Source of the DNA: Proteiniphilum acetatigenes DSM 18083
Lineage (GTDB): Bacteria > Bacteroidota > Bacteroidia > Bacteroidales > Dysgonomonadaceae
Direction of reading: 5' to 3'
Assembly: GCF_000380985.1 (NCBI RefSeq)
Contig: NZ_KB905709.1
Coordinates: 1-64,000 of the forward strand
DNA length: 64,000 bases
Shown: piece after piece, positions 4,919 to 48,437 of the stretch
How the letters are laid out: each line of letters starts with the position of its first letter
How positions within the stretch are numbered: the first letter of the stretch is position 1
Notes under the pieces: model-generated
Database searches by the model: none
Told to the model about the DNA's origin: nothing
Seen by the model: only the letters and a program-made list of their open reading frames with translations
Made by a program: the position numbers and the translations under genes

Positions 4919-5095
4919 GAGGTGGAAAAGTGGAAAGGTGGTTAGGTGATTTGCACGATAAAAGATAGAAGTGAGGAAGTCAAGAAGTAGAGAAGTTTGA
5001 ATTGGAAATCGACGTAGTCAAATTTTGAAATTCTGAAATATAAAATCTGAAATTTTACTCTAAATAAAAGATCATATAAAAACTAATAATACAAT

Positions 5096-33779: not shown

Positions 33780-34775
33780 TTATATATTGTTTGCTGTTCT
33801 CCGGAATTTTATATTTGTAAGCACGATGGCAAAGAGGATAAGGAATACTCCTACCCATTGAAGCGCCTGTACATTCTCCTGAAGGATAAAACTGGAAGAG
33901 ACCACTGCGACCGGCAACTCTGCTGCGCTAAGGATAGCGCCCAGCGAAACTCCGGTACGCGGCATGCCGAAAGAAAAAAACAGAGGAGGGATAACGGTTC
34001 CAAGCAATGCCAGCATCAATCCCCATTTATAAAGTCCGTCGAAAAACAGTCCATCAAACAAAAATAACGGTGGAAAAATCATCCAGGTGACAATACAGGA
34101 GCCGGTAATCATCAATGCCCCTTTTTTCAAAACCGGCAGATCATTCCCTACCCTGCCGCTTGCTATCAGGAACAGGGCATAACAAAATGCAGCCAACAAG
34201 CCAAATCCTATCCCTTTTATATTTAAAGTCACAGCCTCGTTAAATATACCTGCCGCGAACACCGTGCCGACAAGCACTATTGAAGCGGCAATCAGTTGCA
34301 TTCTATGCGGTTTTTTTCTGAACAGGACCGCTTCAATCAAAATGCTGATCCACAGATATTGCATCAACAGGATAATGGCAATGGATGCGGGTAATAGTTT
34401 TACGCACTGATAGTAAAAAATACCAACCAATCCTGTGAAGATCCCGGCAAAAGCCACTTTCCACCAGGCGGTCCGGCCTGGAGAACTATTGTCACCAGCA
34501 AGCGACCGGAGGAACTGTTCTCCGCTACGCACTATCCGGCCTGAGGAAGCGTTTCCAGCAGCTCCCAAAGGAGTGCGGTTCCCTGCCCCGAACAGAAACT
34601 TTTGCAAGGAATAGAGCGCCCACAACATCACCATTCCCAGGAAAGCCTGGCTTCCGGTTATTTGTCCGAGGGTGTAACCTTCCTCATACGCATTTTTTAC
34701 AATCGTCGATAGAACTCCGAAGCTGCATGCCCCAAGAAAAACAAAAATACCTCCAGTGAATTTATTCCGATTCAT
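33780..34775 (-). CDS. EamA/DMT-family transporter
   Basis: 331-residue inner-membrane protein with about ten hydrophobic segments arranged as two EamA halves, typical of the drug/metabolite transporter superfamily. First half starts GGIFVFLGACSFGVLSTIVK; second half holds GIGFGLLAAFCYALFLIASG and LLGTVIPPLFFSFGM. A polar, GC-rich stretch at about residues 68-100 (GAAGNASSGRIVRSGEQFL) enlarges the loop after the second span and is unusual for the family. Substrate not predictable. Confidence 0.85.
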   Translation of the reverse strand: MNRNKFTGGIFVFLGACSFGVLSTIVKNAYEEGYTLGQITGSQAFLGMVMLWALYSLQKFLFGAGNRTPLGAAGNASSGRIVRSGEQFLRSLAGDNSSPGRTAWWKVAFAGIFTGLVGIFYYQCVKLLPASIAIILLMQYLWISILIEAVLFRKKPHRMQLIAASIVLVGTVFAAGIFNEAVTLNIKGIGFGLLAAFCYALFLIASGRVGNDLPVLKKGALMITGSCIVTWMIFPPLFLFDGLFFDGLYKWGLMLALLGTVIPPLFFSFGMPRTGVSLGAILSAAELPVAVVSSSFILQENVQALQWVGVFLILFAIVLTNIKFRRTANNI

Positions 34776-34977: not shown

Positions 34978-35271
34978 ATGATGACTACCGATGAATATTT
35001 GCAGAAACTGAAACAGTTTAAATTGCAATACGCCGAAGAGTACGGCATAGAGCGTATTGGAATTTTCGGTTCTGTGGCACGCGGCGAACAGACCGAAGAC
35101 AGCGATATCGATATTTATTACGAAGGCAAGTCGTTGGGATTGAAATCGCTGGTAAGCTTTCCCGCCGAACTCGAAAAGTTTTTCGATATGCCTGTTGATG
35201 TTGTGCGCAAACACAAGAACCTGCGTCCTTCTTTCCTTAAACGCATTATGAGTGAGATTGTGTATGCATGA
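34978..35271 (+). CDS. MNT-type nucleotidyltransferase (antitoxin of MNT-HEPN pair)
   Basis: 97-residue minimal nucleotidyltransferase. The catalytic signature is complete: GIFGSVARGEQTEDSDIDIY (GS, then DxD near residues 30-42) and a third acidic residue in MPVDVVRK. In MNT-HEPN (MntA-HepT) systems this enzyme adds AMP to the HEPN RNase and silences it. Its stop codon overlaps the start of a HEPN gene that is badly deleted here, so the pair is no longer a working toxin-antitoxin unit in this strand of the locus (inference). Confidence 0.88.
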   Translation: MMTTDEYLQKLKQFKLQYAEEYGIERIGIFGSVARGEQTEDSDIDIYYEGKSLGLKSLVSFPAELEKFFDMPVDVVRKHKNLRPSFLKRIMSEIVYA

Positions 35272-35460
35272 TAAGTTTTTGATAATTGAGACATTAGGGC
35301 AAGTTGAAACGACGATTGAAAATTTGCTCAAAAGTACGGCTCACATTAAGGATATAGATGAATTGACAAAATCCGCAGATGGAATGTTGCGAACGATATA
35401 CCTCCACTTTTAGCCGTAATAAAACAAATGAAAAAAGACATAAACGCTGTATCAGAATAA
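35264..35460 (+). pseudogene. HEPN toxin (DUF86/HepT type) with internal deletion
   Basis: Starts 8 bases inside the MNT gene. The first 49 codons (stop at 35411-35413) keep the HEPN N-terminus: MHDKFLIIETLGQVETTIEN then LTKSADGML. In the adjacent frame, 35386-35460 encodes ANDIPPLLAVIKQMKKDIN, which fits the normal C-terminus of this family. The about 50 residues between, including the RNase motif Rx4-6H, are absent, and the two ends are joined out of frame near 35386-35391. The toxin is therefore inactive. Confidence 0.75.
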
Positions 35461-35475
35461 CGTTACTTTTTTGTA

Positions 35476-35671
35476 TTACGCGTCTCTCTTTTCTAACACC
35501 CACCTCAGGAAGGAGGTGTATTTCAACTCGATTTTCGCGGGAAAAGTAAAGGGCGCCGGTATCTTAATGGCCTGCCCGTCGTGGTCCACGGGATAGACCT
35601 CCACTTCGTACCAGCCTCCCGAACGGGAAACATATAGTGTTTCGGGAACGTCTTAAAAGATGAAACGCACC
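35476..35671 (-). pseudogene. Partial second copy of the short HlyD-like gene
   Basis: Bases 35521-35671 match 36361-36511 at a constant 840-base offset with no gaps; I count 139 identical of 151. It corresponds to the last about 60 codons of the secretion-type gene at 36319-36804. An in-frame stop (35653-35655) and loss of everything upstream show it is dead. Its end differs (RWVLEKRDA instead of KWIVRKVE), so it came from a related rather than identical copy or has diverged. Confidence 0.85.
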
Positions 35672-35731: not shown

Positions 35732-35760
35732 GTAAATAGATATATAACACAAATGTGATT

Positions 35761-36018
35761 ATGGAAACAAGAGTGGCAAAAAAGCAAACGGCTTTTAGGC
35801 TGAATGAAAACTTAGTTAGCAGACTGAAAGCAGAGGCAAAAAGAACGAATAGAAGCTTAAGTAACTATGTAGAATGTATTCTCATGGAGAGCGTTTATAA
35901 CGAGCCGAACGATGAGACAAAGGCAGCCATTAAAGAGGCAAAAGCGGGCAAGTATGCGGGGACTATCGACATGAAAGATTTTGATTCTTTCATGAAATCC
36001 GTAAACGATATCGAATGA
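35761..36018 (+). CDS. Ribbon-helix-helix antitoxin
   Basis: 85-residue antitoxin. Residues 5-45 form a ribbon-helix-helix DNA-binding region (KKQTAFRLNENLVSRLKAEA then RTNRSLSNYVE). The C-terminal tail (AKAGKYAGTIDMKDFDSFM) is the usual toxin-wrapping part. The ATG at 35761 is preferred over a GTG two codons upstream. It overlaps the toxin start as ATGA, and expected repression is through the operator at 35719-35731. Confidence 0.82.
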   Translation: METRVAKKQTAFRLNENLVSRLKAEAKRTNRSLSNYVECILMESVYNEPNDETKAAIKEAKAGKYAGTIDMKDFDSFMKSVNDIE

Positions 36019-36284
36019 AAGAGCTTCGTTATAGTACCAAAGCAAAGAAAGACTTAAAGAAGTACAGGAACAATCCCCGTAAGATGGAGAAACTGTATCA
36101 AGTCTTATACATGCTCATTAATGATATTGAAATCCCTGAGACTTTCATACCTCATAAACTGATAGGACAGTACAAGGGCTGCATGGAATGTCATATTGAT
36201 CCCGATTTTTTGCTCATTTGGTTAGACGAGAACAATGAATATATACAGATTGTTCGGATTGGCAGCCATTCGGAATTATTTTAA
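36015..36284 (+). CDS. YafQ/RelE-type toxin
   Basis: 89-residue toxin of the RelE/ParE superfamily, YafQ branch; such toxins cut mRNA on the ribosome. Marks: YSTKAKKDLKKYRNNPRKME, PHKLIGQYKGCMECHIDPDF and LLIWLDENNEYIQIVRIGSH. The His-Asp-His type residues of YafQ (HIDPD and the final GSHSELF) are present, so it looks active. The pair sits between a dead and a live copy of the short HlyD-like gene, as if inserted into or carried by a duplication. Confidence 0.87.
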   Translation: MKELRYSTKAKKDLKKYRNNPRKMEKLYQVLYMLINDIEIPETFIPHKLIGQYKGCMECHIDPDFLLIWLDENNEYIQIVRIGSHSELF

Positions 36285-36318
36285 AGATTTTACCGGAAAA
36301 TGAATGGAAAGCCACGGT

Positions 36319-36804
36319 TTATTCCACTTTTCGTACAATCCATTTCAAAAAAGTGGTGTATTTCAACTCTATTTTCGCGGGAAAAGTAAAGGGCGCCGGT
36401 ATTTTAATGGCCTGCCCGTCGTGGTCCACGGGATAGACCTCCACTTCGTACCATCCTCCCGAACGGGAGACATGCAGCGTGTCGGGCACGTCATGGAAGA
36501 TGAAACGCACCGGCATGGGGCCTTCCACCGGGGGGCTGCCTGCGATAAATGCGATTTTGTCCCGTTGCGCCATCGCACGCTGCGGTATCCGCGCCGTATA
36601 ATGCACCTTACCCCTTTCATCCTGCGCAACACCGATCTCAATGGAGATCTTCGGCTGGTACGGGACAAAGGCGGCAATACCTGCCAGTACCAGTAACGCG
36701 GCAACGATCATGACTGTGCCGTACCGCACCAGTACAGGTGGCATCCGCCCGATAATGTTCCGCACCTTTTCGCTGCGCAATTCTATTGGTTTATTCTCTT
36801 CCAT
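36319..36804 (-). CDS. Short HlyD-like membrane protein of the peptide exporter
   Basis: 161 residues. The start (IELRSEKVRNIIGRMPPVLV then RYGTVMIVAALLVLAGI) matches the cytoplasmic and membrane segment of HlyD-type fusion proteins that accompany C39 ABC exporters in Bacteroidota. The usual long coiled coil and lipoyl domains are absent; the remaining 110 residues look like one beta-rich domain (FIFHDVPDTLHVSRSGGWYE). It lies downstream of the exporter gene on the same strand. It could be a reduced adaptor or partner of a full HlyD encoded elsewhere. High G+C, like the exporter. Confidence 0.6.
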   Translation of the reverse strand: MEENKPIELRSEKVRNIIGRMPPVLVRYGTVMIVAALLVLAGIAAFVPYQPKISIEIGVAQDERGKVHYTARIPQRAMAQRDKIAFIAGSPPVEGPMPVRFIFHDVPDTLHVSRSGGWYEVEVYPVDHDGQAIKIPAPFTFPAKIELKYTTFLKWIVRKVE

Positions 36805-36896
36805 CTTTACTCATGGGTTTGCAATTATCTCATTATCACTACTTACCGAAGAATCGGAACAAGTTATCCCGACTTGTCGGGATCCACTAACCGGCA

Positions 36897-36984
36897 CATT
36901 AGTATTTTCACTCCGTGCAATCTGCTCCCGCCCGGCAAACTTAAGTAAACTTGTTTGCCCCCACTTACCCGCAGATTTCACTTT
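36897..36984 (-). repeat. Dispersed hairpin repeat, copy 8
   Basis: Minus-strand order: GTGAAATCTGCGGGTAAG, hairpin with CAAACAAGTTTACTTAAG and TTTGCCGGGCGGGAGC, then AGATTGCACGGAGTGAAAA. Its flanks align with copies 4 and 5, which defines the longer form of the element. Just beside it (36867-36884) is a separate palindrome ATCCCGAC-TT-GTCGGGAT. Confidence 0.65.
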
Positions 36985-37025
36985 TAGTTTTTAGTTTTCA
37001 GTTTTTAGTTTTTCACTTTTAACTG

Positions 37026-39224
37026 TTAATTCCCCAGCTCCAACTGGTTCTTCACCAGTTCGTAATACTTTCCCCGTTTCCCAGTCAGTTCCCCGTGGGT
37101 TCCCGTTTCGGCGATGCGTCCGCCGTCGAGTACCACGATCTGATCCGCATTTTTTACCGTGCTGAGGCGGTGTGCTACTACGACCACCGTTTTGTCCCGG
37201 TAGAAGGCTTCCAGGTTCTCCACGATGGTCCGCTCATTGTTCGCGTCCAGCGAGTTGGTCGCCTCGTCGAGGAAGATGAACGGCGGGTCCTTGTACACCA
37301 CCCGCGCGATAAGGATGCGCTGCCGCTGCCCCTGGCTCACGCCCTGACCGTCCTGCCCGATCCTCGTGTTGTAGCCCAGCGGCAGGCGTCCGATATCTTC
37401 CGCAATGTTCGCTATACGGGCGGCATGGCGCAACCGCTCCACATCCACCTCGTCGCCCGCCACGGCGATGTTGCGGGCGATGGTGTCGGAGAACAGGTAA
37501 CCGTCCTGCATCACCGCCCCGCATTGGGTGCGCCACCAGGTCAGGTTCATGTCTTCCAGTCCGGTTGTCCCAACGGTGATCTGGCCTTCATCGGGGGCGT
37601 AGTAGCCCAGTAACAGTTTTACCAGTGTGGTCTTCCCGCTGCCGCTCGCACCCACGATGGCTGTCACCTTCCCTTGGGGTATAACCAGGCCGATGTTGTC
37701 CAGCACGTAGTCCGGCCGCGCACCGTCGTATTTGAAGCATAGGTGTTGAACATGGATGGAACGGTCTATGGGCAACTCCGCCACAGTCCGGTGCTCGTCC
37801 TCCTCGTTGCGCTGCGTGTGGATCTCGTTCATGCGGTCGAGGCTGATGCCCACGTCCTGCCACTGGTAGATGAAGTTCATTATCTGTTCAACCGGGCTGT
37901 TCAACTGACCGATGATGTACTGGATGGCCAGCATCATCCCCAGGGTAAGGTTCCCGCTTATGACGGCGGTGGCCGCCAGCACCGTCACCAGAACATTTTT
38001 TAACTCGTTGATTAGAATGCTACCCGCCTCCTGATTCTGTCGCAAATTGAGCGATTGCAGGTTCACGTCGAACAGGTCCGCCTGCACGTCTTCCCACTCC
38101 CAGCGCTTGCGCTGTTCGCACCCCTGGAGTTTGATCTCCTGCATGCCGGTGATCAACTGGCACGTCACGTTCCGGTTGATGCCCTGTTGCTCGAACATCT
38201 TGTAATCCAACACGCGCCGCTTTTTCAGGAATACCATGATCCACAGGCCGTAGAGGATGCTGCCGGCGAGGAACACGGCGAAGACGGGCACATTGTAGAT
38301 GAACAGCACCACCGAGAAGATCACGAAGGTAAAGGCGGAGAACAGCACCGTGATGGTCTGGTTGGTGAGGAAGTTCTCAATGCGGCGGTGGTCTTCGATG
38401 CGTTGCAACAGGTCGCCCGTGAGCTTGGTGTCGAAGAACTTCATGGGCAGTTTCATCAGTTTGATAAAGAAGTCGGAGATGAGGGAGACGTTGATGCGGG
38501 TGCTGATATGCAGCAGTATCTTGCGGCGGATGAAGTCGATTGCGGTGCGGCTGAACAGCAGCATCATCTGGGCGATGAGCACCAGCCAGATAAAGCCGAT
38601 GTCTTTCCCGGAGATGCCAGTGTCCACGATGGCCTGGGTAAGGAACGGGAAGATGAGTTGCAACAGGCTGCCGATAAACAAGCCGAGGATTAATTGCGTG
38701 AAAAAGCGTTTGTATTTGAGCAGGTATTTCCAGAGGAACTTCAGGCGGTTTTGCGTTGGGGCGGCATCTCCTTCCTGTTCATAAAAGAGGCTGGTGGGTT
38801 CCAGCAGCAAGGCTACCCCTTTTTCCTCACCACCCGTACGGGTACTGACCCACCGGTCGCAGAACTCTTCGCGTGAATAGATAAGTAGGCCCTTGCCGGG
38901 GTCGGCTACAGAAATTTTATAGCCCTTTTTGTTTTTCCTTATCCCGTACACCACCACGAAATGTTCCTGGTTCCAGTGGACGATGCAGGGCAGTGGCGCT
39001 TTCTCAGCTAGCTTGTCGAAGGTAAGACGCCCTCCCACGGTATGAAAGCCAAGTTTTTCCGCGGCGCGGCTGATACCCAACAACGAGACCCCGTCACGGC
39101 CGATAAAGCAGTTTTCGCGCAGGTGCTCCAGCGTGTACCGCTTGCCGTAATGCCCGGACACCATCCTCAGGCAGGCGGGGCCGCAGTCCATTGCGTCGGG
39201 TTGTTGGGTGAAGGGGAAAGGCAT
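37026..39224 (-). CDS. C39-peptidase ABC exporter
   Basis: 732-residue exporter that removes double-glycine leaders and pumps the mature peptide out. Residues 1-140 are the C39 peptidase: AMDCGPACLRM (catalytic Cys14), VHWNQEHFVVVYG (His) and VADPGKG (Asp). Six-span transmembrane domain at about 165-450, then the ATPase with GASGSGKTTLVK (Walker A), GVSQGQRQRILIARV (signature, with SQGQ for SGGQ) and FIFLDEATNSLD (Walker B). It lies with precursor peptides ending in GG, a maturase and an outer-membrane barrel. A 60-base sample (37321-37380) is 70% G+C, far above its neighbours. Confidence 0.92.
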   Translation of the reverse strand: MPFPFTQQPDAMDCGPACLRMVSGHYGKRYTLEHLRENCFIGRDGVSLLGISRAAEKLGFHTVGGRLTFDKLAEKAPLPCIVHWNQEHFVVVYGIRKNKKGYKISVADPGKGLLIYSREEFCDRWVSTRTGGEEKGVALLLEPTSLFYEQEGDAAPTQNRLKFLWKYLLKYKRFFTQLILGLFIGSLLQLIFPFLTQAIVDTGISGKDIGFIWLVLIAQMMLLFSRTAIDFIRRKILLHISTRINVSLISDFFIKLMKLPMKFFDTKLTGDLLQRIEDHRRIENFLTNQTITVLFSAFTFVIFSVVLFIYNVPVFAVFLAGSILYGLWIMVFLKKRRVLDYKMFEQQGINRNVTCQLITGMQEIKLQGCEQRKRWEWEDVQADLFDVNLQSLNLRQNQEAGSILINELKNVLVTVLAATAVISGNLTLGMMLAIQYIIGQLNSPVEQIMNFIYQWQDVGISLDRMNEIHTQRNEEDEHRTVAELPIDRSIHVQHLCFKYDGARPDYVLDNIGLVIPQGKVTAIVGASGSGKTTLVKLLLGYYAPDEGQITVGTTGLEDMNLTWWRTQCGAVMQDGYLFSDTIARNIAVAGDEVDVERLRHAARIANIAEDIGRLPLGYNTRIGQDGQGVSQGQRQRILIARVVYKDPPFIFLDEATNSLDANNERTIVENLEAFYRDKTVVVVAHRLSTVKNADQIVVLDGGRIAETGTHGELTGKRGKYYELVKNQLELGN

Positions 39225-39241
39225 GGCTTTGTAGCTTTGAA

Positions 39242-41515
39242 TTATAAAGAAATTCCTTCTTCTTTGCTATTTACAACATTATCCAATTTGATTTTTTGTT
39301 TACTGTTTTTTCTGAAAGTATAGCGGAGTAAAATCCAAGGATGAGATGAAGCATCTATCATCCGAATCTTATAGTATGAGTTGTATGTCCCGACTTGGGT
39401 TATAGTTTCTGTACTGAGTTTACCAATAAAATAAGGTATTGCTACAGCTACATAAAAATCTTTTGTAAAATTGTAATTTACCTGAAACTGAGAGTATGCG
39501 GGGGTTAATTGTTTTATCCTAGAAGTTGGACTAAAAACATAATTTCTATAATTAACATCTCCGCCGAATATCCATTTTTTATAATACACCCATATACCTC
39601 CGCTTAAAGAGAAGCTTTGTTTTGCACTCATTTCTTCAAAATAATCGGTATGATGATAAGCCCCTATATAGATATTTCCTCTATTTTCTTTAAAGCGATA
39701 AGTAATATTCCCTCCAGTAGAAAGTGACTTATATTTACCCATATTATTGAATGTATTCACAAATGTTCCATTTTCTTTATATCCAAAAGGTTCAATTATA
39801 TCGTTAGAAAGATTATAAGTAATGGATGGTGTAAAATAAAATCCTTTTGTGTTAAGAGTATAAGATGCTTCTATCTTATGAGTTTGCTCCGGCAGAAGTT
39901 TAGGATTTCCCTTAATTATGACTAGAGGATCAGTCGAAGTATTATACGGATTCAATTGTCCGACGTTTGGTGTCTGGTTAGTTAAAGTATAACTAAATCT
40001 CGTAGAGTTATTGGAGTTGATTCTGTATGTTCCACTTAATGATGCGCGTGGCCTTACATACTGATTCGAAGATTCACCCGCTTTTAACATGATACTTTCT
40101 AATCCCGCCGAAACCATATAAAGAAGATTACCCGCTTTACTACTAAAAGTGGCATATAGGTATTCATTCCATGCTTTATGGTGAAAGACTGGTACATTAT
40201 CGCTAATCTTATTGATATTATCATTAATATAGTTGGTCGCACTACCGATATTTAAACTGTTTACTTTATTCCACTGCCATGAATAATCAATATTAAGGTT
40301 AGCAGAAGAACGATCACTCCTATACTCGAATAGATTATTGTATAAATCATGAGGGTAAGTCTCGGATCGTTCTCCTTTGTTGTTATCACTGTTTTTATTA
40401 TATGCCAAAGTAGCTTCCAGGGTCTTTTCAGGAGTAAAATCGTGTTTATAATATAAACTTGCTGTTTTGATATCAGCTACATTATTATCGGCAGATGTCA
40501 AGGAGAAATTCTCCTTTTGATCCCGATCAAAAATACCTTCGCCCCAAGTTTTTGTATTCTTGTCATTCCATTTTCCATAAACATGAGCTGCTATATAATC
40601 GTTTTCGGTTACACTCCATTTAAACAATAGTTCCCCTATACTTACTTTGTTATTGGTTTGTGAATCTCCAGCACTCTCTTTAAAGTAATCAATATCTTTT
40701 TGCCATGTACTGAATTCACTATCATCTTTAACTGTTCTGTCTAGGGCTCCTCTTCCATATAACGAATATTTTGGATTGCCAACTTCAAAATAAACCACAC
40801 CCATACTATATCTCAAAGGAACATCATGTCTTGTTGCTGTTTGGAAGAATTGGTATGGTTCACGTTTGGGTTTTAGTTTAATGTTAAGTATGTTCTTCAC
40901 ACCCATTCTCATATAACGTGCACTTACTACATCAATAACCTCAACCGATTCAATATCTTTAGGATCAATGGGAGTAATTCCGGTGTTAATAATTTTACCA
41001 TCAATCAGCACCAATAATTTACCTCCATCTATCATGCTTACCGTTTGTAAAGATTCATTTACATTTAATCTTGGAATTTCACGTAAAGCGCGATATGGAT
41101 CTCCACTGTTTTTTGCACTTTCTGAAAGGTAGAAAATTTCACCAGTAGCCGTTCTTCTCACTAAATTAGTTGGATCAGCCGTTATGATAACGTCGTCCAA
41201 TTCAATATCCATTTCTTCAACTAATACAAATTCAGCATTTATATTTTTAAAGATATCTCTTTGTTCTTCGATAGGAGTAAAACCAGGATATAATATCTGT
41301 AATGAATATTCAGCTTTTGGGAGATTTCCAATGCTGAATTGTCCACGCTCATTAGTTAGACTAACTGCAAATAGTGAATCATTCTTCGACAGAATTATTT
41401 GAACTCCTGCCAGTTGTTGATTATTTTTATCTGTAACTTTACCCGAGAATGAATATTGGGCATTCATCAACTGAGAGAGTATAAGAAATGACATTATAAG
41501 GGTTATATTTTTCAT
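39242..41515 (-). CDS. Outer-membrane beta-barrel protein of the peptide locus
   Basis: 757 residues: signal peptide 1-19, a carboxypeptidase-regulatory-like beta-sandwich (about 22-100, FSGKVTDKNNQQLAGVQII), a plug-like segment (about 110-215, LREIPRLNVNESLQTVSMID, VLIDGKIINTG, IESVEVIDVVSARY) and a long barrel. It belongs to the outer-membrane beta-barrel family related to TonB-dependent receptors, but I see no clear TonB box. Located between maturase and exporter, it may export, import or protect against the peptide. AT-rich, in sharp contrast to the exporter 17 bases downstream. Confidence 0.82.
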   Translation of the reverse strand: MKNITLIMSFLILSQLMNAQYSFSGKVTDKNNQQLAGVQIILSKNDSLFAVSLTNERGQFSIGNLPKAEYSLQILYPGFTPIEEQRDIFKNINAEFVLVEEMDIELDDVIITADPTNLVRRTATGEIFYLSESAKNSGDPYRALREIPRLNVNESLQTVSMIDGGKLLVLIDGKIINTGITPIDPKDIESVEVIDVVSARYMRMGVKNILNIKLKPKREPYQFFQTATRHDVPLRYSMGVVYFEVGNPKYSLYGRGALDRTVKDDSEFSTWQKDIDYFKESAGDSQTNNKVSIGELLFKWSVTENDYIAAHVYGKWNDKNTKTWGEGIFDRDQKENFSLTSADNNVADIKTASLYYKHDFTPEKTLEATLAYNKNSDNNKGERSETYPHDLYNNLFEYRSDRSSANLNIDYSWQWNKVNSLNIGSATNYINDNINKISDNVPVFHHKAWNEYLYATFSSKAGNLLYMVSAGLESIMLKAGESSNQYVRPRASLSGTYRINSNNSTRFSYTLTNQTPNVGQLNPYNTSTDPLVIIKGNPKLLPEQTHKIEASYTLNTKGFYFTPSITYNLSNDIIEPFGYKENGTFVNTFNNMGKYKSLSTGGNITYRFKENRGNIYIGAYHHTDYFEEMSAKQSFSLSGGIWVYYKKWIFGGDVNYRNYVFSPTSRIKQLTPAYSQFQVNYNFTKDFYVAVAIPYFIGKLSTETITQVGTYNSYYKIRMIDASSHPWILLRYTFRKNSKQKIKLDNVVNSKEEGISL

Positions 41516-41540
41516 CAGAATATATTTATATCCAATATTT

Positions 41541-42853
41541 TTAAATCTGGTGTGCGACTTGATTTAATTCCTCTTTTAGTAAATGGTATTTAAAAGAATA
41601 CATTAGATACTCCTTGGAATCCATGTTCATAGAATCAAAGGTGCATATAAATTTCCCTGTATGAGCTAGCAATTGTTTGTTACATGGACCAAAACATGCT
41701 GGAAACCATTTACACTCCTCACATTCTTTTTGAGTAATGTCCTTGAACCAATTTGCCATCTTGGTTAAATCCCACTTTATTTGTCCAGTCTCAAAATTCA
41801 ATTTTCCAAGTGATTCTTTTTCATCAAAAGATGAGACGGTTGAACATTTAAATACTTTACCGTCGTAATTGAATAATGTATGTCTTTGCCTTTCTGCAAA
41901 ACATAGATACCCTTTAGGCATAATATAGTAGTCGAGTAAAAATTTCTTATCGAAAAACTTTTGAATAGCCGAGTGAAGAAGCTCTCTATCAACTTTGTTA
42001 GTTGGAATTTGCCATACCTTTTTTAAAATTACAAATGTTGATTTTCTATCCATGAAATCAATGTCATTTATAATTTCATCGATTTTTCTTAAGGCTCGAT
42101 TATCAAAATTAACTCTGACTGCCACTCCTCGATTTGGTATTTTAGAGTTAATCAAACGTAAAGCTTCTATTGTCTTTTGGTAGGTATCTGTTGATGGATT
42201 TAGAATATCCTTTTTGATTGAATTATGGACTTTCCTGTCGCCGTCGAGTGTTATTTGAAAAGATGAATTGAAACTTTTTAGATAATCCACCTTTTCTTCA
42301 TTTATTAAGGTTGCATTCGTTGTGAATTCAGTAGTAAGAGCGATCTCTTTATTATCGCAGAATTCTTTGGCATAATCCAGTATTTTTTTTACACCTTCAA
42401 AATAAAGTAAAGGTTCTCCTCCAAAGAAAGAAACCTTTAAGGTATTATATCTTGCTGATTGATATTCATATTCAATGTTTTTTTTAATCGCTTTTATTGT
42501 GTCTTCATTTAAATAGCTCTTTGAAATTCGATTTTCATAACAGTACCAACAATTCAAATTACAATCCAAGGTTGTATTTATCATAATCTGATACATATTG
42601 GAATTATATTGCATTTGTCTTTTTAGGTTTTTCACTACCTCAAACTCATCAAAATCATCGGGAACAATGAAATAATTCTCTAATAATTTATTATAAAGAG
42701 AATTATCAAATTTCTCAATATCCTCACAATTATATTATTGAAAATCTCATGTTTAGTTTTATTCAATAAAAGAAATTCATTGCTAAAAGAATTGTAATGC
42801 AAATAAATTTGTGGCGAGATTTCCTCTTGAAACAAGTAAAAATTCTTTTTCAT
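41541..42853 (-). pseudogene. Radical SAM/SPASM peptide maturase with a frameshift
   Basis: About 437 residues if restored. Start ATG at 42853 (MKKNFYLFQEEISPQIYLHY); this frame hits TAG at 42680-42682. The remainder is one base out of phase: from about 42728 the other frame reads CEDIEKFDNSLYNKLLENYF then IVPDDFDEFEVV and runs on to 41541. The core has TLDCNLNCWYCYEN (SAM 4Fe-4S), SFFGGEPLLYF, and a SPASM region with CFAERQR, FKCSTVSS, CEECKWFPACFGPC. Internal initiation at the GTG near 42635 would still give the radical SAM core but lose the likely leader-binding N-terminus. A sequencing error is possible. Confidence 0.8.
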
Positions 42854-43033
42854 TTCTATTCTATTTATTTTGCTGATATACTTATATAAATGGGTATACC
42901 GTTAATTCTCATTTCGTATCTTCGATTCTTTGTTTATTTCTCTACTTTGACATTACATTCAGTTATCCATTATTTAATAAATATCTGTTTGTAGTGAATA
43001 AATAATTGCGGGGACAAATTATCCATAAGGCAA

Positions 43034-43060
43034 TAAAGCAAGGGATTTTCCCTTGCTTTA
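43034..43060 (-). terminator. Perfect hairpin after precursor gene 1
   Basis: TAAAGCAAGGGA and TCCCTTGCTTTA form a 12-bp perfect stem with a 3-base loop, 23 bases after the precursor stop. On the minus strand it is followed by TTGCC, not a T-run, so it is probably a partial terminator or 3' stabiliser giving more precursor than maturase mRNA. Confidence 0.65.
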
Positions 43061-43082
43061 CCGGTTCATTTTCATCGATCAA

Positions 43083-43262
43083 TTATTCAGCTTGCTCTAT
43101 AGGCTTGCATGTGCCACTGCCATTATTTGGGCCACCATAGCAAACTCCGTCACCGTTATTTACAGCAGCAACACTAGCTCCAGAGCCACCATGTAAAAGC
43201 ATCATTTCATCCACGTTTAACTGATCTATAATGTCGATTGATAAAGTCATTAAAGTATTCAT
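43083..43262 (-). CDS. Double-glycine RiPP precursor peptide 1
   Basis: 59-residue peptide, too short for routine gene calling. Leader MNTLMTLSIDIIDQLNVDEM, then MLLHGG: a helical leader ending in Gly-Gly, the cut site of C39 exporters. The predicted core of 33 residues starts SGASVAAVNNGDGVCYGG and has two cysteines (residues 41 and 52), many Gly and Asn, and ends KPIEQAE. This is the layout of the GG-Bacteroidales natural-product precursors targeted by radical SAM/SPASM enzymes. The maturase, barrel and exporter follow on the same strand. The modification is unknown. Confidence 0.82.
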   Translation of the reverse strand: MNTLMTLSIDIIDQLNVDEMMLLHGGSGASVAAVNNGDGVCYGGPNNGSGTCKPIEQAE

Positions 43263-43476
43263 AATTATATTTTTTTAATTTTTTATACTCATCTCGTTTT
43301 TCGGAATGACTTCCGATTATTATTCACTAAAATTTCATCAGATAGTTATATCTCTTCACGAGGCATATCTTATCGAGCATATCACAAACATACTGTTTTT
43401 TTTCGCCTCTTAGCTACTTCCCTTCACTGTCCCGGCGGCTTCCGGTAAAAATCTGTTATACCCAAACCCCTGGGTG

Positions 43477-43507
43477 TTTGAAATTACCGTGTGTTGTGTT
43501 AACTTTG
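43477..43507 (+). promoter_or_regulatory. Promoter inside the peptide locus, opposite strand
   Basis: TTTG (43477-43480), exactly 19 bases, TAACTTTG (43500-43507): full match to the Bacteroidota TTTG-N19-TAnnTTTG promoter, reading away from precursor 1 and toward precursor 2. Confidence 0.7.
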
Positions 43508-43512
43508 CAGTG

Positions 43513-43596
43513 CCTTTTCTTGTAGGTTTAGTTAAACATCAGGGTTGATTGGTCTCAATTTGGTTGTTCGCTTTCCTGGCAAGGGAAGGCTTTTTT
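43513..43596 (+). ncRNA. Candidate small RNA between the two precursors
   Basis: About 84 bases from the expected transcription start of the promoter at 43477-43507 to a rho-independent terminator. It has no open frame of note, contains a small hairpin GTTTA-GT-TAAAC, and ends in the terminator stem 43570-43590 with T6. It lies antisense to the spacer between precursor genes 2 and 1, so it could base-pair with a read-through transcript of that pair (inference). Confidence 0.55.
43570..43596 (+). terminator. Rho-independent terminator of the candidate small RNA
   Basis: GCTTTCC (43570-43576) pairs with GGAAGGC (43584-43590), one G-T pair, 7-base loop, then six T residues. Confidence 0.75.
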
Positions 43597-43678
43597 CCTG
43601 CTACCGGCCTTTTTTGGCCCTTAGCATTAGGCTTCCCGGGTTCTGAATCCGTTTTACCGTCGTTGGTTTTTGTCTTTA

Positions 43679-43873
43679 CTAAAGCGGTTTCATTTCAATA
43701 ATTTGTCCTGCACTGTTTCTTCTAACCAAATAGGGTTTTCCGTCAATATAAACTATGTCATACTCTTCTTCAGCACTTGTCGTACCTCCTTTTAGTTGTG
43801 CCATAGCTGCACTCTGTAATACATCGGCACATGGCATGCACATGTGATCGATACTTGTTTTCCGGTTCTTCAT
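43679..43873 (-). CDS. Double-glycine peptide 2, possible second precursor
   Basis: 64 residues: MKNRKTSIDHMCMPCADVLQ, SAAMAQLKGG, then a 34-residue tail TTSAEEEYDIVYIDGKPYLV then RRNSAGQIIEMKPL. The GG at 29-30 after a hydrophobic, helical stretch fits a C39 leader cut site. The tail has no cysteine and is rich in Tyr, Asp and Glu, quite unlike peptide 1; cysteines occur only in the leader. It is 416 bases upstream of precursor 1 on the same strand. It could be another exported peptide or a processed signal for the adjacent sensor kinase. Confidence 0.6.
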   Translation of the reverse strand: MKNRKTSIDHMCMPCADVLQSAAMAQLKGGTTSAEEEYDIVYIDGKPYLVRRNSAGQIIEMKPL

Positions 43874-44091
43874 ACGTTATTCTTTAATAGTTCTTTAATG
43901 GAGTAAAGTTGGAGCCTTTTTTTGGAACCGTTTCTAACAAATCTCTAACATTTGTCTAACCAATCTAACAAAACAAACACTATTATGCTTTTTTAACTAA
44001 TATTCCTCCTTCTTGTGTGTGTTTTACTTTATATGGCACATCTGTATTCCTGTTTTTCTTTTTAAATTTGCACAAGGTGCTATAATTGTGT

Positions 44092-45456
44092 ATGAAACGA
44101 GTCATGAAAAAATATTTGCTGCTCATCATATCCTTATTGGCAATAGTCTTGCTCATTGTATCACAGATAGTGTGGGTAAGGCAACTGATGATACGCGACA
44201 AAGAGCGCTTTGAAACAGATTTGCAGCACAGCTTAAGAAGTATTGTGCCGTTCTGCCTTTCCCGGGAATTAAGTAAAAAAGGAGATGCGAATAGACAGAG
44301 CTTCGAACTTATTCCTCTCGATCCTTCTAGCCTACCTCCGGGAGGAATTATCAGGGGCTCTTTCGATACCAAAGAGTACCGGTCGGATAAAAACCTGGGC
44401 AATTTCCTGGTAGGCGCCTTTGCCGAAGAGTTATTGCATGATAACAAAATACCGCTGGAACCTATCGACTCCCTCTTCAGAAAAGAATTTATACATTATC
44501 CCGAAATCGCGGACTATTCCATGAGTTTGCTTATGAACGACTCCGTGATGCGCGAATTACATGCGGACAGGAAAGCCCATACAGTCTTAAAAAATAATGA
44601 TACGGGTATTACCGTAAATATTCCGTTAGGAGAGACCGGAACTTACCGCTATATGGCTCACGTAGTGTTCAAACCGGCGGTGTATATACAACGGCTGCGC
44701 TCCACTACAACGCTTTCGGCCGTAGCGGTCGTGCTTATTTCCCTGCTTGTGCTGTACCAACTGATGCAGCTGAAGAAAAGAACAGAAGCGCTGGAAGCAC
44801 ACACACAGGCGGTGAGCGGCATTGTGCACGACCTGAAATCACCCCTCTCGTATGTGTATACCATGCTGGGGATATTTGAAAAAAATGAACCGCTTGCCGC
44901 AAAGAAAAACATGCTGCACACCGCGAAAACAAGGGTGAAATATCTTTCGGACAAGATTGGCGTATTGCTGACGACCGTAAAAAACGAAAATAACGTCTTG
45001 CAAATAGATCCCGCTGCTTACCCTTTCTCCCGGCGGTGCAACGAAATAATACAAGAACTGGAGGTGGTGTATGCCGATAAAAAAATCGCCTGTTCCATTG
45101 AACCGGAAACGGAAGTAACGATACAGGCCGACCCGGTTTATTTTGACGGCTGCGTACGCAACCTGCTCGATAATGCCATAAAGTATTCGGGTGAAAAGCC
45201 CGAGGTGAGGATCACCGCGGAAACAACCAAAGGCAAGGCAATCCTTACTTTTACCGATAACGGTAAAGGGATGGAAGAAAAAGAACGGAAAAAAGTATTC
45301 AGGGAATTTTACCGCTCCGGTACGGGTTCCACGTTAAAAGACCACGGCATCGGGTTGACTTTTGTAAAACAGGTGGTCAATGCGCATAAAGGAAAGATCA
45401 CCCTGGAAAGTTCACCGGGAAAAGGCAGTACTTTTACGATCATCTTATCTCAATAA
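44092..45456 (+). CDS. Sensor histidine kinase
   Basis: 454 residues. A first membrane span (about 7-27, YLLLIISLLAIVLLIVSQIV), a periplasmic sensor of about 175 residues without a known domain, and a second span (about 205-225, AVAVVLISLLVLYQ). HisKA with the phosphorylated His near 245 (IVHDLKSPLSY), then HATPase_c (NLLDNAIKYSG, FTDNGKGMEE, GIGLTFVKQVV). ATGs at 44092 and 44104 are both possible; a TTG further up is unlikely. It forms an operon with the response regulator and is divergent from peptide gene 2, so it may sense the peptide or control the locus (inference). Confidence 0.92.
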   Translation: MKRVMKKYLLLIISLLAIVLLIVSQIVWVRQLMIRDKERFETDLQHSLRSIVPFCLSRELSKKGDANRQSFELIPLDPSSLPPGGIIRGSFDTKEYRSDKNLGNFLVGAFAEELLHDNKIPLEPIDSLFRKEFIHYPEIADYSMSLLMNDSVMRELHADRKAHTVLKNNDTGITVNIPLGETGTYRYMAHVVFKPAVYIQRLRSTTTLSAVAVVLISLLVLYQLMQLKKRTEALEAHTQAVSGIVHDLKSPLSYVYTMLGIFEKNEPLAAKKNMLHTAKTRVKYLSDKIGVLLTTVKNENNVLQIDPAAYPFSRRCNEIIQELEVVYADKKIACSIEPETEVTIQADPVYFDGCVRNLLDNAIKYSGEKPEVRITAETTKGKAILTFTDNGKGMEEKERKKVFREFYRSGTGSTLKDHGIGLTFVKQVVNAHKGKITLESSPGKGSTFTIILSQ

Positions 45457-45464
45457 TTTTTATT

Positions 45465-46148
45465 ATGACAGATCCCATTAAAGTGATACTGGTTGACGAT
45501 GATACCGACCTGGGAAATCTGGTAAGCACAGCGCTTGCCGCTGACGGCTACAAGGTACATTTTCAAAATTCGCTTGCCGGCATCAATAGTATCATTGAAG
45601 AGTTCAAACCCTCCATCCTGGTATTGGATGTGGAGATCGGTGAAGAGGACGGCATTACATGTGCCGAAGATATTCTTAAAATCTATCCGTCGCTTCCGGT
45701 GTTGTTTATTTCTTCGCATACCGATACCAAGAGCGTGGCCCGGGGGGTACGTACTGGTGGCGTAGGATATATCCGTAAACCGTTCGACATGGAGGAATTA
45801 AAAGTGTTCATTGACCGTTTTGCACATCCCGGAGAGGATCATTCAGGCATTCAGATAGGCCGTGACTATTCTCTAAACGTTAAAACGAGGGAATTGCGTT
45901 ATCGGGCAACTCCGGTAAAGCAATTGAGCCCTCATGAATTTGAGACTTTATTGTTTTTTGTACAAAACAGGGATAACGTAATATCTTATGAAACACTGTC
46001 GGGAAAAGTATGGAGAAAAGAATATTCCGAAACCGAAGCATCCATGAACAATCTGGTCTCCAGATTGAGAAAGATATTGGGAAACGATCCCTGTATACAT
46101 ATTCAAACCGTAAAAAATAGAGGATATCTGCTAATTATTGATCTGTGA
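45465..46148 (+). CDS. OmpR/PhoB-family response regulator
   Basis: 227 residues. Receiver domain 1-120 with acidic pocket VDDDTDLG, phosphorylated Asp near 54 (LVLDVEIGEEDG), and lysine in IRKPFDMEE. The C-terminal winged helix (about 128-227) shows LSPHEFETLLFF, VWRKEYSETEASMNNLVSRL and TVKNRGYLL. It begins 8 bases after the kinase gene and is the cognate partner. It converges on the FUSC-family gene with a 17-base gap. Confidence 0.94.
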   Translation: MTDPIKVILVDDDTDLGNLVSTALAADGYKVHFQNSLAGINSIIEEFKPSILVLDVEIGEEDGITCAEDILKIYPSLPVLFISSHTDTKSVARGVRTGGVGYIRKPFDMEELKVFIDRFAHPGEDHSGIQIGRDYSLNVKTRELRYRATPVKQLSPHEFETLLFFVQNRDNVISYETLSGKVWRKEYSETEASMNNLVSRLRKILGNDPCIHIQTVKNRGYLLIIDL

Positions 46149-46165
46149 TTTTTTCAAAAAACATA

Positions 46166-48316
46166 TTATACCTCATACAGTTTCACAATCCCTTTTGCCT
46201 CTGCCAGCAACTCACGTGAAACATGGGCGATATTGTAGATAAGCCTTACCCTGTGGTTTCCGGCATCATCCATCATTTTGTCGATCTGTTCGTCCCAACA
46301 GTTTGCTTTCCGGAAACTGTCCTCAATCTGCTTTTCATCGGCGTTGTTGGTTAACATCTCCGAAACCAGGCGGAGTACATCGCTCACATCACGGCAAAGG
46401 GCAAGTTCTGTTTCCGAGAGATCACCGGCCGACTTATGGACACCGAAAGCGGAGATATAGGACAGCAGGGCATGGTTCAGGTTAGTGAGGTTAAAAGCCT
46501 TATCCTGATACCCGCGCCTGTTCTTGGGTTCCAGCCGCATCCATTTCCAGGCGGAAGTCAAGGCGTTGTCGGCATTGTAAGCGGTACGCCGGTTGTGAAG
46601 ATAATCCTCCTCGGAGACGGAACCGTCATAGATGCTCTCGAAATAACGCCTGTTTTTTGCCACCGCATTCAGCATCAGCCCCGGGAGCTGCTTATACTGC
46701 CAATCGGGCCAGATAAAGCGTACAGCCATATAGGCGAGCGTGCCGCCCACCAACGTATCGATGATACGGGGCATCATTACGGCTACTCCCTGGTTAGAAA
46801 GCAAATTGAAAGCTGCCAGCACGAAGATAGTGATAAAGACGACAGCGATCGTATAGTTTTTCTTCAGCCAGTAAAAGAAGAAGTAAATGGAGGTGAGCAA
46901 CAAGAGTATCTGTCCCGGAGTGGTGGGCAGCAGTTGTGCCAGGGCGACCCCTCCAACAACTCCCAGCAAGGTACCGAACACGCGGTGGAAAAGCCGGATA
47001 CGCGTGGCGCTATAGGTTTGCTGGACAACAATCAGCGATGTCATCAGTATCCACGAACCCTTCCCGAAATTCAAATAAAGCATGATTCCGTATCCCAGCA
47101 TCCAACACAAGGTAAGCCTCACTGCAAAGCGAAAACGGGGATGAGTGGCATGCAACAGTGATTTCAAACCGGTTCTCTCCGGCTTCCGGGAATGAAAGAC
47201 CGTCACATCTATCTGGTCGATGGTTTTTTCATTCTCCCGGAGATTTTCTTCCAATCCCGTCAGGTTTCTCAGCAGTAACGACAAAGTAAGATAATAGGGT
47301 TCGTCTTTCTCCGCATCGAGCATTGCCCGTAGCGCCGTTATCGTCCATTTCAACGAGAATGGATGCCTGTAAGGTCGTTCGGTCAGCAAGGAGTCGGCAT
47401 AGAGACGAACTGCTGCTGCAATCTCCCTCATCAGTTTTCCGAACCCTTCCAGCAAATCGCTGCTTTTCACCTGGCGCGATAATAAATCGTACTGCTCATG
47501 GCTCGATATGGCCCTTTCCTGCATGGCCTGCAACAAAAACCATTGGCGATAGTAATGATCCGCCACCGGAAGTGCTTCAGGACTGCATTCTTCCGAATAG
47601 CTGTAAAGATCGTTCTTGCATGCTTCGATCTGTTGCGCCAGATTTATATTTTTTTGTGCCAGTTGGGTCCTGATCACTTTTTGTACCTGAGGATCGCTGG
47701 GGAATAGATTTGCCTTCAGGTCGATATATTCTGCCAGGAAGTGAAACCCACGGGCAAGCTGTTGTTGCAATAGCCGATAAGGCCTGAAGTAAAGTAGCAG
47801 GATAGAGATCACGGCATAACAAAAGGCTCCAAGGGTGAAAAACAGGGGGAGATAATACCATTTTTCACTGTTTTCAGCCGCCAGCATGGAATAGACCAAA
47901 ATAAGCATTGTCCCGAAAGTAACTCCCTGCATCCGTGAATCGATACCTCCAATCAAAAGGAGGGAAAAGGAGAGAACAAGCAACACAATAGCAAACCAGG
48001 CCGGCAGAGGTAGAAAGATAGCCACTAAACTACTGGTAATTACGTAAAGTATTAGCGCTATGGAGGAAGATTTGATCCTTCCTTTCGGATGCACATCGGT
48101 TTCTCCCAATGCCATCGCCACCACTCCCAGTGCCAGAGTCGTACCAAAAAAGGAGTTATGGAATATCAACTCGGTGGGGATCAGCAGGAAAGCAATGGAT
48201 ACGGTCACCTTCAATGCCCACAAATGATCGGGGCTTTTCCAGAACACATTGATCCAGATGTCGGCTATCCTATCTTTTATCGGTTCTACTCCATTACTCA
48301 TCTTATCTTTTGGCAT
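46166..48316 (-). CDS. FUSC/YccS-type inner-membrane protein
   Basis: About 716 residues from the ATG at 48316 (MPKDKMSNGVEPI). It has two sets of membrane spans (about 30-190 and 385-520) separated and followed by cytoplasmic regions, the architecture of YccS/YhfK and aromatic-acid exporter (AaeB-like) proteins. Marks: FHNSFFGTTLALGVVAMALG in the first set and YSATRIRLFHRVFGTLLGVV in the second (FUSC signature). Probable efflux function; substrate unknown. ATGs at 48337 and 48301 are alternatives. Confidence 0.83.
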   Translation of the reverse strand: MPKDKMSNGVEPIKDRIADIWINVFWKSPDHLWALKVTVSIAFLLIPTELIFHNSFFGTTLALGVVAMALGETDVHPKGRIKSSSIALILYVITSSLVAIFLPLPAWFAIVLLVLSFSLLLIGGIDSRMQGVTFGTMLILVYSMLAAENSEKWYYLPLFFTLGAFCYAVISILLLYFRPYRLLQQQLARGFHFLAEYIDLKANLFPSDPQVQKVIRTQLAQKNINLAQQIEACKNDLYSYSEECSPEALPVADHYYRQWFLLQAMQERAISSHEQYDLLSRQVKSSDLLEGFGKLMREIAAAVRLYADSLLTERPYRHPFSLKWTITALRAMLDAEKDEPYYLTLSLLLRNLTGLEENLRENEKTIDQIDVTVFHSRKPERTGLKSLLHATHPRFRFAVRLTLCWMLGYGIMLYLNFGKGSWILMTSLIVVQQTYSATRIRLFHRVFGTLLGVVGGVALAQLLPTTPGQILLLLTSIYFFFYWLKKNYTIAVVFITIFVLAAFNLLSNQGVAVMMPRIIDTLVGGTLAYMAVRFIWPDWQYKQLPGLMLNAVAKNRRYFESIYDGSVSEEDYLHNRRTAYNADNALTSAWKWMRLEPKNRRGYQDKAFNLTNLNHALLSYISAFGVHKSAGDLSETELALCRDVSDVLRLVSEMLTNNADEKQIEDSFRKANCWDEQIDKMMDDAGNHRVRLIYNIAHVSRELLAEAKGIVKLYEV

Positions 48317-48437
48317 ATCTATGTAGGAAATTACCAATTGCCAATTGCCAATTGCGAATTACTAATTACCAATTACTAATGACTAATTAATTGGTACGCC
48401 AAACATCAACAAATCATCAAATCACCACATTAACAAA

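What the first reader, a model, noticed from the sequence alone, without database searches (positions are those of the whole stretch)
36319..43873. Compact RiPP locus with an unannotated Cys-containing double-glycine precursor
A 59-residue gene (43083-43262) encodes a leader ending LLHGG and a Gly/Asn-rich core with two Cys. On the same strand follow a radical SAM/SPASM maturase, an outer-membrane barrel, a C39-peptidase exporter and a short HlyD-like protein. Known: GG-leader plus radical SAM/SPASM plus C39 exporter loci occur in Bacteroidales as predicted natural-product systems. New here: the particular core sequence and a dedicated outer-membrane barrel between maturase and exporter. The product could be a bacteriocin or signal.
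Basis: partly seen in the sequence, partly recalled or inferred. Interest (0 to 1): 0.85.

Follow-up and report, generated by a model that had tools for sequence, protein, structure and literature searches.

The report
Swappable peptide-weapon cassette beside fixed exporter
A Bacteroidales bacterium carries a gene set that looks built to make, modify and export a small cysteine-containing peptide, and comparison with relatives shows that the peptide-making part is swapped like a cartridge in front of an export machine that stays nearly the same.

Summary
The small gene is real. Its core carries NNGxGxC twice; homologous cores sit beside homologous maturases in Parabacteroides distasonis (three repeats) and other Bacteroidales.

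Two corrections. The maturase is not one open frame here: the frame is lost within 42719-42746, so this copy may be dead, or the assembly wrong. The barrel is not new: 10 of 17 related loci have one beside the maturase, and published surveys report such barrels.

Tree tests reject a shared history. Four genomes keep stray fragments of an exporter's 5' end behind barrel genes.

A conserved second GG peptide (43679-43873) sits beside a histidine kinase and response regulator.

Best reading: an exchangeable bacteriocin-type cassette served by a fixed exporter, organised like the pneumococcal blp locus. Product, activity and signalling are inferred. Nine paper searches showed no description of this swapping.

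The parts
43083..43262 (-). RiPP precursor, 59 aa, leader ending LLHGG, core with NNGDGVC and NNGSGTC
   Evidence: homologues L023, L024 and P. distasonis L079
42680..42853 (-). N-terminal fragment of the maturase (57-aa ORF)
   Evidence: 53% identical to residues 1-36 of the P. distasonis maturase
42719..42746 (-). stretch in which the maturase reading frame is lost relative to intact homologues
41541..42635 (-). radical SAM/SPASM catalytic part of the maturase (364 aa from an internal GTG)
   Evidence: Pfam PF04055; 66% identical to L022, 62% to P. distasonis
39242..41515 (-). outer-membrane barrel with TonB-dependent-transporter fold: CarboxypepD_reg domain, plug, barrel
   Evidence: Pfam; profile search; model (pLDDT 80, pTM 0.68); fold search
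37026..39224 (-). C39 peptidase-containing ABC exporter, the constant part of the slot
   Evidence: Pfam; 89-93% identical in three congeners
36319..36804 (-). short HlyD-like accessory protein (161 aa) with N-terminal IELRSEKVRNIIG and a hydrophobic stretch
   Evidence: alignment; relatives of 62-244 aa
43268..43595 (.). non-coding region upstream of the precursor, conserved at the left border of the cassette
   Evidence: no Rfam match at gathering score
43679..43873 (-). 64-aa GG-leader peptide without Cys in its core, conserved across loci; candidate pheromone
44092..45456 (+). histidine kinase, divergently transcribed
   Evidence: Pfam HATPase_c
45465..46148 (+). OmpR-type response regulator
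   Evidence: Pfam Response_reg and Trans_reg_C
33780..34775 (-). right flank of the slot: EamA-type transporter (name recalled), then TsaD, formate channel and PflB (names recalled)
46166..48337 (-). left flank of the slot: FUSC-like inner membrane protein
   Evidence: Pfam

Best explanation
The interval is an exchangeable RiPP cassette (precursor, radical SAM/SPASM maturase, TonB-dependent-transporter-like barrel; about 39225-43267) in a conserved export slot. The constant parts are the C39 ABC exporter, a shortened HlyD, a conserved upstream region and, in part of the lineage, a GG-leader peptide next to a histidine kinase and response regulator. Proposed working: the kinase senses the secreted peptide of the 64-aa gene and switches the cassette on; the maturase installs cross-links at the repeated NNGxGxC Cys; the C39 exporter cuts both peptides at GG and exports them; the cassette's own barrel carries, or recognises, the mature product at the outer membrane. 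The product is most likely a bacteriocin-type peptide. New cassettes enter by homologous recombination between the upstream region and the exporter's 5' end, and sometimes leave older cassettes stranded with an exporter fragment. Shown here: gene content, the slot, exchange, stranding, conservation of the second peptide. Inferred: the recombination route, chemistry, activity, signalling, role of the barrel. This copy may be inactive, because its maturase frame is broken.
For: Exporter 93, 92 and 89% identical in G013, G010 and G012, while the adjacent maturases are 20, 17 and 23% and the barrels 17, 18 and 14% identical to the window's. blastn homology ends at 39218-39225 (exporter ATG at 39224) and resumes at 43268 (L039), 43286 (L040) and 43413 (L041), upstream of the precursor ATG at 43262. 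GC 56.9% in the exporter against 33.4% and 30.9% in barrel and maturase. AU tests: maturase data reject the clade that the exporters form (p 3e-5); exporter data reject window plus P. distasonis, which the maturase tree supports at 100/99. Exporter 5' remnants behind barrel genes: three in G013 (61, 20 and 63 residues), two in G268 (83 and 76), one in G466 (28), one in L035 (207). Two G013 remnants share the same junction to a spacer that also precedes the upstream region in L050. Constant peptide beside HK/RR in 8 of 9 loci seen. The kinase's sensor part is as conserved as or more than its kinase part where the peptide is alike (window vs G001 63 vs 50%) and less where it differs (window vs G010b 17 vs 31%). 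Same gene order in P. distasonis.
Against: The maturase frame is broken in this genome. The conserved upstream region also occurs in G012 and G013, which lack the peptide and have a TPR regulator instead of HK/RR at the site; in G013 only a piecewise match to the kinase exists elsewhere (50 and 34%, two frames), and G012 is 59% complete. So the region is not tied to this kinase. G466 has the constant peptide with no HK/RR in the ORF list of the stretch fetched. Some exporter remnants do not fit the 5'-end rule: an inner fragment in L043 (residues 424-479) and 3' parts in L038 and G038; the L035 remnant lies downstream of an intact exporter. TonB-dependent-type barrels usually import (recalled). 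No immunity gene was recognised. No expression, mass or activity data were available.
Confidence: 0.72

Rival explanations
1. Decayed locus: the cassette in this genome is a pseudogene on its way out, as in G038 (exporter truncated) and G003 (exporter gone, transposase in place), so nothing is made.
For: Maturase frame break; G038 keeps only the exporter's 3' part at the site; G003 has flanks at 97.0 and 94.0% nucleotide identity with 2.65 kb between the EamA-type and FUSC genes, an ISL3 transposase and remnants of the short HlyD and the response regulator.
Against: Precursor, barrel, exporter, accessory protein, kinase and regulator are all open here. A single break in a 37-contig draft can be an assembly error.
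Confidence: 0.4
2. The product is a signal or a metal- or nutrient-scavenging peptide, and the TonB-dependent barrel takes it back up, rather than a bacteriocin.
For: The barrel folds as a plugged TonB-dependent transporter: the profile hits Cir, PfeA-type and FepA receptors, Foldseek hits PirA, Cir, FepA and BtuB. Two-Cys cores could bind metal.
Against: Core, maturase and barrel are replaced as a set with little sequence kept, and stranded copies accumulate; a house-keeping scavenger would not be expected to vary so. Cir is also bound by microcin V (title of 9nn6), so the fold does not exclude a bacteriocin.
Confidence: 0.25
3. The barrel is an immunity or self-recognition protein and not an export channel.
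For: It is exchanged together with the precursor; some stranded cassettes keep the barrel without a maturase (L039 12593-14953, L077 9788-12196), as orphan immunity genes are kept in CDI arrays (PMC3150448 passages).
Against: A barrel next to the exporter and a full-length HlyD exclude each other in the loci fetched: 0 of 19 with barrel against 7 of 10 without, Fisher p 8e-5, not corrected for relatedness and not a random sample, which fits a role in outer-membrane passage.
Confidence: 0.35
4. The 64-aa peptide is a second, constant effector and not a pheromone.
For: It lies in the same orientation as the cassette, and it occurs in G466 with no HK/RR in the stretch fetched.
Against: Eight of nine loci have it beside HK/RR; no Cys in the core in 8 of 9, so it is not an evident maturase substrate; its core and the kinase sensor stay alike together.
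Confidence: 0.3

Closest known systems
Parabacteroides distasonis TSDC17.2-1.1 locus on NZ_OY725790.1 (L079; record labelled plasmid), annotated as hypothetical proteins, radical SAM protein, outer membrane beta-barrel protein, peptidase domain-containing ABC transporter
   Same: HK and RR divergent, small GG peptide, NNGxGxC precursor, maturase (62%), barrel, C39 exporter (62%), short HlyD-type protein, in the same order
   Different: Maturase intact; three repeats instead of two; the small GG peptide is only loosely similar; accessory protein only 62 aa
Bacteroidales RiPP clusters BGC1-9 of PMC10352776 (abstract, section 3.2 and found passages read)
   Same: GG precursors, rSAM in 8 of 9, C39 exporter in most, outer-membrane protein without membrane fusion protein in BGC6-9; HK/RR in BGC5, TPR proteins in BGC2 and 9
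   Different: No cassette exchange, stranded copies or constant GG peptide in the parts read; BGC6-8 also have YcaO. Whether their BGC1 or BGC2 belongs to this set was not tested
Pneumococcal blp locus (PMC4860687, passages read)
   Same: Two-component system, GG pheromone, ABC exporter pair that handles signal and bacteriocins, conserved regulatory region, variable bacteriocin genes
   Different: Gram-positive, class II peptides, no radical SAM maturase, no outer-membrane protein; only the organisation is alike
CDI/Rhs orphan toxin-immunity modules (PMC3150448, passages read)
   Same: A conserved carrier sequence with exchangeable modules and arrays of displaced copies that often keep a piece of the carrier gene
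   Different: Protein toxins with immunity genes; here small modified peptides, and the retained piece is the exporter's 5' end
CteB/SCIFF, PapB and CefB-type radical SAM/SPASM maturases
   Same: Radical SAM and SPASM Cys motifs; 5wgg (CteB; name recalled) is the only solved relative at E<=1e-10
   Different: Scores far under the NCBIfam equivalog cut-offs shown; the substrate motif NNGxGxC differs from theirs as far as I recall

Membership tests
RiPP biosynthetic locus with C39 export | short ORF with double-glycine leader next to a modifying enzyme and a C39 transporter | tested here: met
RiPP biosynthetic locus with C39 export | precursor conserved next to homologous maturases elsewhere | tested here: met
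   L023, L024, L079; GG candidate ORFs near 12 of 17 related maturases
RiPP biosynthetic locus with C39 export | intact modifying enzyme | tested here: not met
   frame lost within 42719-42746 in this genome; cannot be told from an assembly error
NCBIfam TIGR04148 GG_samocin_CFB maturase | whole-protein score of at least 300 bits | tested here: not met
   65.3 bits for the catalytic fragment; intact relatives L022, L023, L024, L025 score 54-65
Ranthipeptide or sactipeptide | maturase model above cut-off (PapB, SCIFF, CefB and others) | tested here: not met
   best NF038107 122.9 of 600 and NF047865 99.7 of 340 bits
Ranthipeptide or sactipeptide | thioether from Cys sulfur to a beta/gamma or alpha carbon | not testable with these tools
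   needs mass spectrometry
HlyD-TolC type I secretion | full-length membrane fusion protein with lipoyl and hairpin parts | tested here: not met
   161 aa only, no Pfam hit; full-length 433-456 aa forms occur at other loci
TonB-dependent transporter fold (barrel protein) | plug domain with a beta barrel | tested here: met
   model, Foldseek, profile; Pfam Plug only 17.8 of 23.9 bits
blp-like three-component peptide signalling | GG peptide gene adjacent to a histidine kinase and response regulator | tested here: met
   8 of 9 loci
blp-like three-component peptide signalling | peptide activates the kinase | not testable with these tools
   needs reporter assay

The most novel reading that the evidence does not exclude
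A Gram-negative counterpart of blp-type loci: a peptide-pheromone-controlled export slot in Bacteroidales into which whole peptide-warhead cassettes of different chemistry (several radical SAM subfamilies, apparently also VKOR/disulfide types) are loaded by recombination and stacked when displaced, with a TonB-dependent-type barrel supplied by each cassette in place of the HlyD-TolC conduit, so that the outer-membrane step is product-specific.
Probability: 0.3. Interest if true: 0.85.

Novelty: new variant of a known kind. Interest (0 to 1): 0.62.

Why it matters
It turns a list of uncharacterised Bacteroidales RiPP clusters into one comparable system: a constant exporter gives a handle for finding the variable warheads, stranded cassettes record past ones, and the exclusion between barrel and full-length HlyD makes the open question of how these peptides cross the outer membrane (raised in PMC10352776) directly testable. 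The conserved GG peptide beside HK/RR gives a concrete candidate for secreted-peptide signalling in Bacteroidales. P. distasonis offers an intact, named locus to work on.

Tried and rejected
Known maturase and precursor families: NCBIfam shows no equivalog above cut-off, among the best 25 listed per protein, for the window, for four intact relatives (L022, L023, L024, L025) or for seven cassette maturases; the general SPASM domain model TIGR04085 is passed by some. Eight cassette precursors and the 64-aa peptide were scanned (at E limits of 1, 0.1 and 1e-5): the only hits listed are sub-threshold ones to acetate kinase for the 59-aa peptide, taken as chance. Structured RNA in 36000-48500: none at gathering score. 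A second copy of the upstream region in the own genome: none. A programmed frameshift in the maturase: I looked by eye for a slippery heptamer and saw none; not pursued. Plasmid spread: of 450 plasmid records with a maturase match, only the P. distasonis record is at 60-80% identity. A structure model of the short HlyD was not obtained and not asked again; its profile has no PDB match at E<=1.

Caveats on counts. The barrel/HlyD table covers 29 exporters that I had fetched, not a random draw. Its automatic barrel label failed for several rows, which I assigned by length (650 aa or more) and position; Pfam was run on only four of these barrels (window, L039 and L079) or stranded ones (L077 9788-12196). 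The script missed the 225-aa accessory of L085 seen and the HlyD of L049, which lies upstream. Of the 10 exporters without barrel, 7 have a full-length HlyD, L042 a short one, L032 none, and L029 ends with the contig. Of the 19 with barrel, 11 have a short accessory, 7 show none, and L080 has a damaged exporter end. L084 was left out because its exporter is broken. Leader pattern: 23 of 23 peptides fit, but 6 of them (G447, G435, G481, G466 twice, G449) had been picked with that very pattern, so only 17 are a test. G268 was left out of the AU tests because of its long branch. The clades tested were named after seeing the identity tables. Gene identities in L022-L038 were judged from ORF length, order and sequence, with tblastn for exporter, HlyD, kinase and TPR; the Clostridia locus L036 was not examined further.


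Full report
WHAT IS THERE. The 59-aa ORF at 43262-43083(-) exists with the leader and two-Cys core described. It is one of two ORFs among 330 of 40-110 aa in the window with the leader pattern; that pattern alone is near chance (0.97 per simulated window), but NNGxGxC twice is not (one occurrence in 30 simulated windows). A scan of GTDB genomes with the maturase's catalytic part returned 17 loci confirmed by tblastn. A GG-type candidate precursor was seen near 12 of 17 and a barrel-type ORF next to the maturase in 10 of 17; seven of 17 (L024, L025, L027, L030, L033, L034, L035) have precursor, maturase, barrel and at least the start of a C39 exporter. L036 was not examined. L023 has four repeats NN(G/A)xGxC; L024 has NNxxxC three times. 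The closest named locus is on a 278-kb record of Parabacteroides distasonis, where the precursor has three repeats (the third NNSSGRC) and the order of genes is the same.

THE MATURASE IS BROKEN HERE. Residues 1-36 and 46-430 of the P. distasonis maturase match different frames of the window, with the change between 42746 and 42719. The catalytic part keeps the radical SAM and SPASM cysteines. The damaged part is the N-terminal region, which in such maturases usually binds the leader (recalled). L022, L023, L024 and P. distasonis have one open frame. I cannot tell mutation from assembly error.

A SLOT WITH EXCHANGEABLE CASSETTES. Searching 39 genomes of the genus with the exporter found it at 93% (G013), 92% (G010), 89% (G012, 59% complete) and 82% (a second locus of G010). 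The maturases beside the first three are only 20, 17 and 23% identical to the window's and the barrels 17, 18 and 14%; the second locus of G010 has no cassette. DNA homology of the window covers the short HlyD and the exporter, stops at 39218-39225, and resumes at 43268 (L039), 43286 (L040) or 43413 (L041) (exporter start 39224, precursor start 43262); in the G013 contig end L050 it reaches 43241. Flanking genes are the same on both sides in G010 and, over separate contigs, in G013; in G012 only the FUSC side is on the contig. GC falls from 56.9% in the exporter to 33.4% in the barrel and 30.9% in the maturase; a similar step is seen in L039, L040 and L041, a smaller one in P. distasonis (46.6, 41.2, 29.1). 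In trees of 20 loci with adjacent exporter and maturase, the window's exporter groups with its congeners and its maturase with P. distasonis (100/99). Holding the four congeners together costs the maturase tree 195 log-likelihood units (AU p 3e-5); holding window and P. distasonis together costs the exporter tree 106.

STRANDED CASSETTES. In G013 the stretch upstream of the working cassette and further contigs hold more precursor, maturase and barrel genes, and barrels followed by the first codons of an exporter: 61 residues at L039 12583-12407, 20 at L039 15162-15103, 63 at L044 395-213. Two of these end at the same junction; the spacer that follows is also found upstream of the conserved region in L050. 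In a second genus, G268 shows two stranded barrels with 83 and 76 residues of exporter, plus a decayed copy of the constant peptide. G466 has a 28-residue remnant and the Bacteroidales MAG L035 a 207-residue one, there downstream of an intact exporter. Not every fragment is a 5' end: L043 has an inner piece, L038 and G038 3' pieces. The maturases in these slots lean to different NCBIfam models: PapB/nif11-like in G013a and G010, TIGR04463/Clo7bot/CefB-like in four other G013 cassettes, MoaA-like in G268; none passes an equivalog cut-off. A VKOR/C39-peptidase/thioredoxin protein was identified by Pfam in L069; ORFs of like length and place precede the exporter in L080 and the remnant in L084, which I read as another chemistry. 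The slot can be lost: G003 has nearly identical flanks with 2.65 kb between them, an ISL3 transposase and remnants of the short HlyD and the response regulator; G038 keeps the exporter's 3' part.

CONSTANT PEPTIDE AND HK/RR. The 64-aa ORF at 43873-43679(-) has a GG leader and a core without Cys, YxIVxIDGxPYLVxRNSxGQIIExKP(L/I) in the closer relatives. Within the genus it is found in G010 twice, G001 and G024 (39 genomes; the G022 hit at E 0.057 lies inside a 1184-aa frame and was dropped), and in 3 of 393 genomes drawn from the order, G000, G268 and G053; P. distasonis and G466 have a positional equivalent. It lies beside a kinase and regulator in 8 of these 9 loci; none was seen in the G466 stretch. 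The sensor part of the kinase is well kept where the peptide is kept. G012 and G013 have no such peptide and carry a TPR regulator at the site instead; the G013 one is weakly BT3442-family-like (109 of 940 bits) with a LuxR-type domain.

BARREL AND SHORT HlyD. The AlphaFold2 model of the barrel (9-row alignment, pLDDT 80, pTM 0.68) has an N-terminal beta domain, a plug-like part and a barrel; the best PDB matches are TonB-dependent transporters (PirA, Cir, FepA, BtuB; TM-scores 0.4-0.6), as in the profile search. Of 29 exporters in the loci fetched, 19 have a barrel-type ORF of 650 aa or more just upstream; none of those has a full-length HlyD, whereas 7 of the 10 others do (Fisher p 8e-5, not corrected for relatedness). 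Eleven of the 19 have a short accessory protein of 62-244 aa with an N-terminal IELRSEKVRN-like motif that resembles the start of the full-length forms; two longer ones still match HlyD_3. I infer that the barrel takes over the outer-membrane step, but an immunity or receptor role is not excluded.

LITERATURE. I made nine paper searches of the PMC library (one search failed on a term). In PMC10352776 I read the abstract, section 3.2 and found passages; in PMC8939145, PMC4860687 and PMC3150448 passages only; the rest are listings. Pairing of C39 exporter with outer-membrane proteins in Bacteroidales RiPP loci is in print. In those searches I saw no report of cassette exchange or stranded cassettes at a fixed exporter in Bacteroidales RiPP loci, nor of this peptide with HK/RR; subscription papers and preprints are not covered.

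VERDICT. A real member of a known kind of locus, with a broken maturase in this genome; what lifts it is the slot-and-cassette behaviour and the peptide/HK/RR module, which make it a new variant organised like blp. Function remains inferred.

Noticed in passing
window 35488-35671 and 36327-36511: 185-bp direct repeat (88%) of the 3' end of the short HlyD gene on either side of a ribbon-helix-helix antitoxin-like ORF (35755-36018) and a YafQ-type toxin (36015-36284).
   Followed up: partly
window 34978-35413; L079 13799-14565: Nucleotidyltransferase-like ORF (by eye) with a short second ORF beside the exporter; the P. distasonis locus has an annotated substrate-binding protein/nucleotidyltransferase pair on the same side of its exporter.
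   Followed up: no
L041 5081-7873: Group II intron reverse transcriptase (RVT_1, GIIM) reads in one frame into the cassette maturase of G012.
   Followed up: partly
L072 6718-7584: ISL3-type transposase sits where the slot is missing in G003; the last 26 residues of the response regulator remain identical.
   Followed up: partly
L069 12618-17602, L080 84-4309, L084 2412-6685: VKOR/C39-peptidase/thioredoxin protein (Pfam in L069 only) with an 868-876-aa barrel-type ORF near GG peptides or the exporter: possibly a disulfide-type cassette.
   Followed up: partly
L025, L028, L041, L050 (tblastn); L082, L083, L085 (by eye): TPR-type regulator of 559-619 aa upstream of the cassette as an alternative to HK/RR; the L050 copy ends in a LuxR-type domain.
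   Followed up: partly
L047 (G000:C19) 1940-5561: The window's genome has a second C39 exporter (53%) with a full-length HlyD and no adjacent barrel.
   Followed up: no
L077 940-1128: A copy of the stretch upstream of the precursor (8809-8998, 95%) lies downstream of the HlyD-like gene in G268.
   Followed up: no
L043 3217-3447 and L050 1-231: 98% identical 231-bp overlap of two G013 contigs near cassette genes: a repeat or an assembly joint.
   Followed up: no
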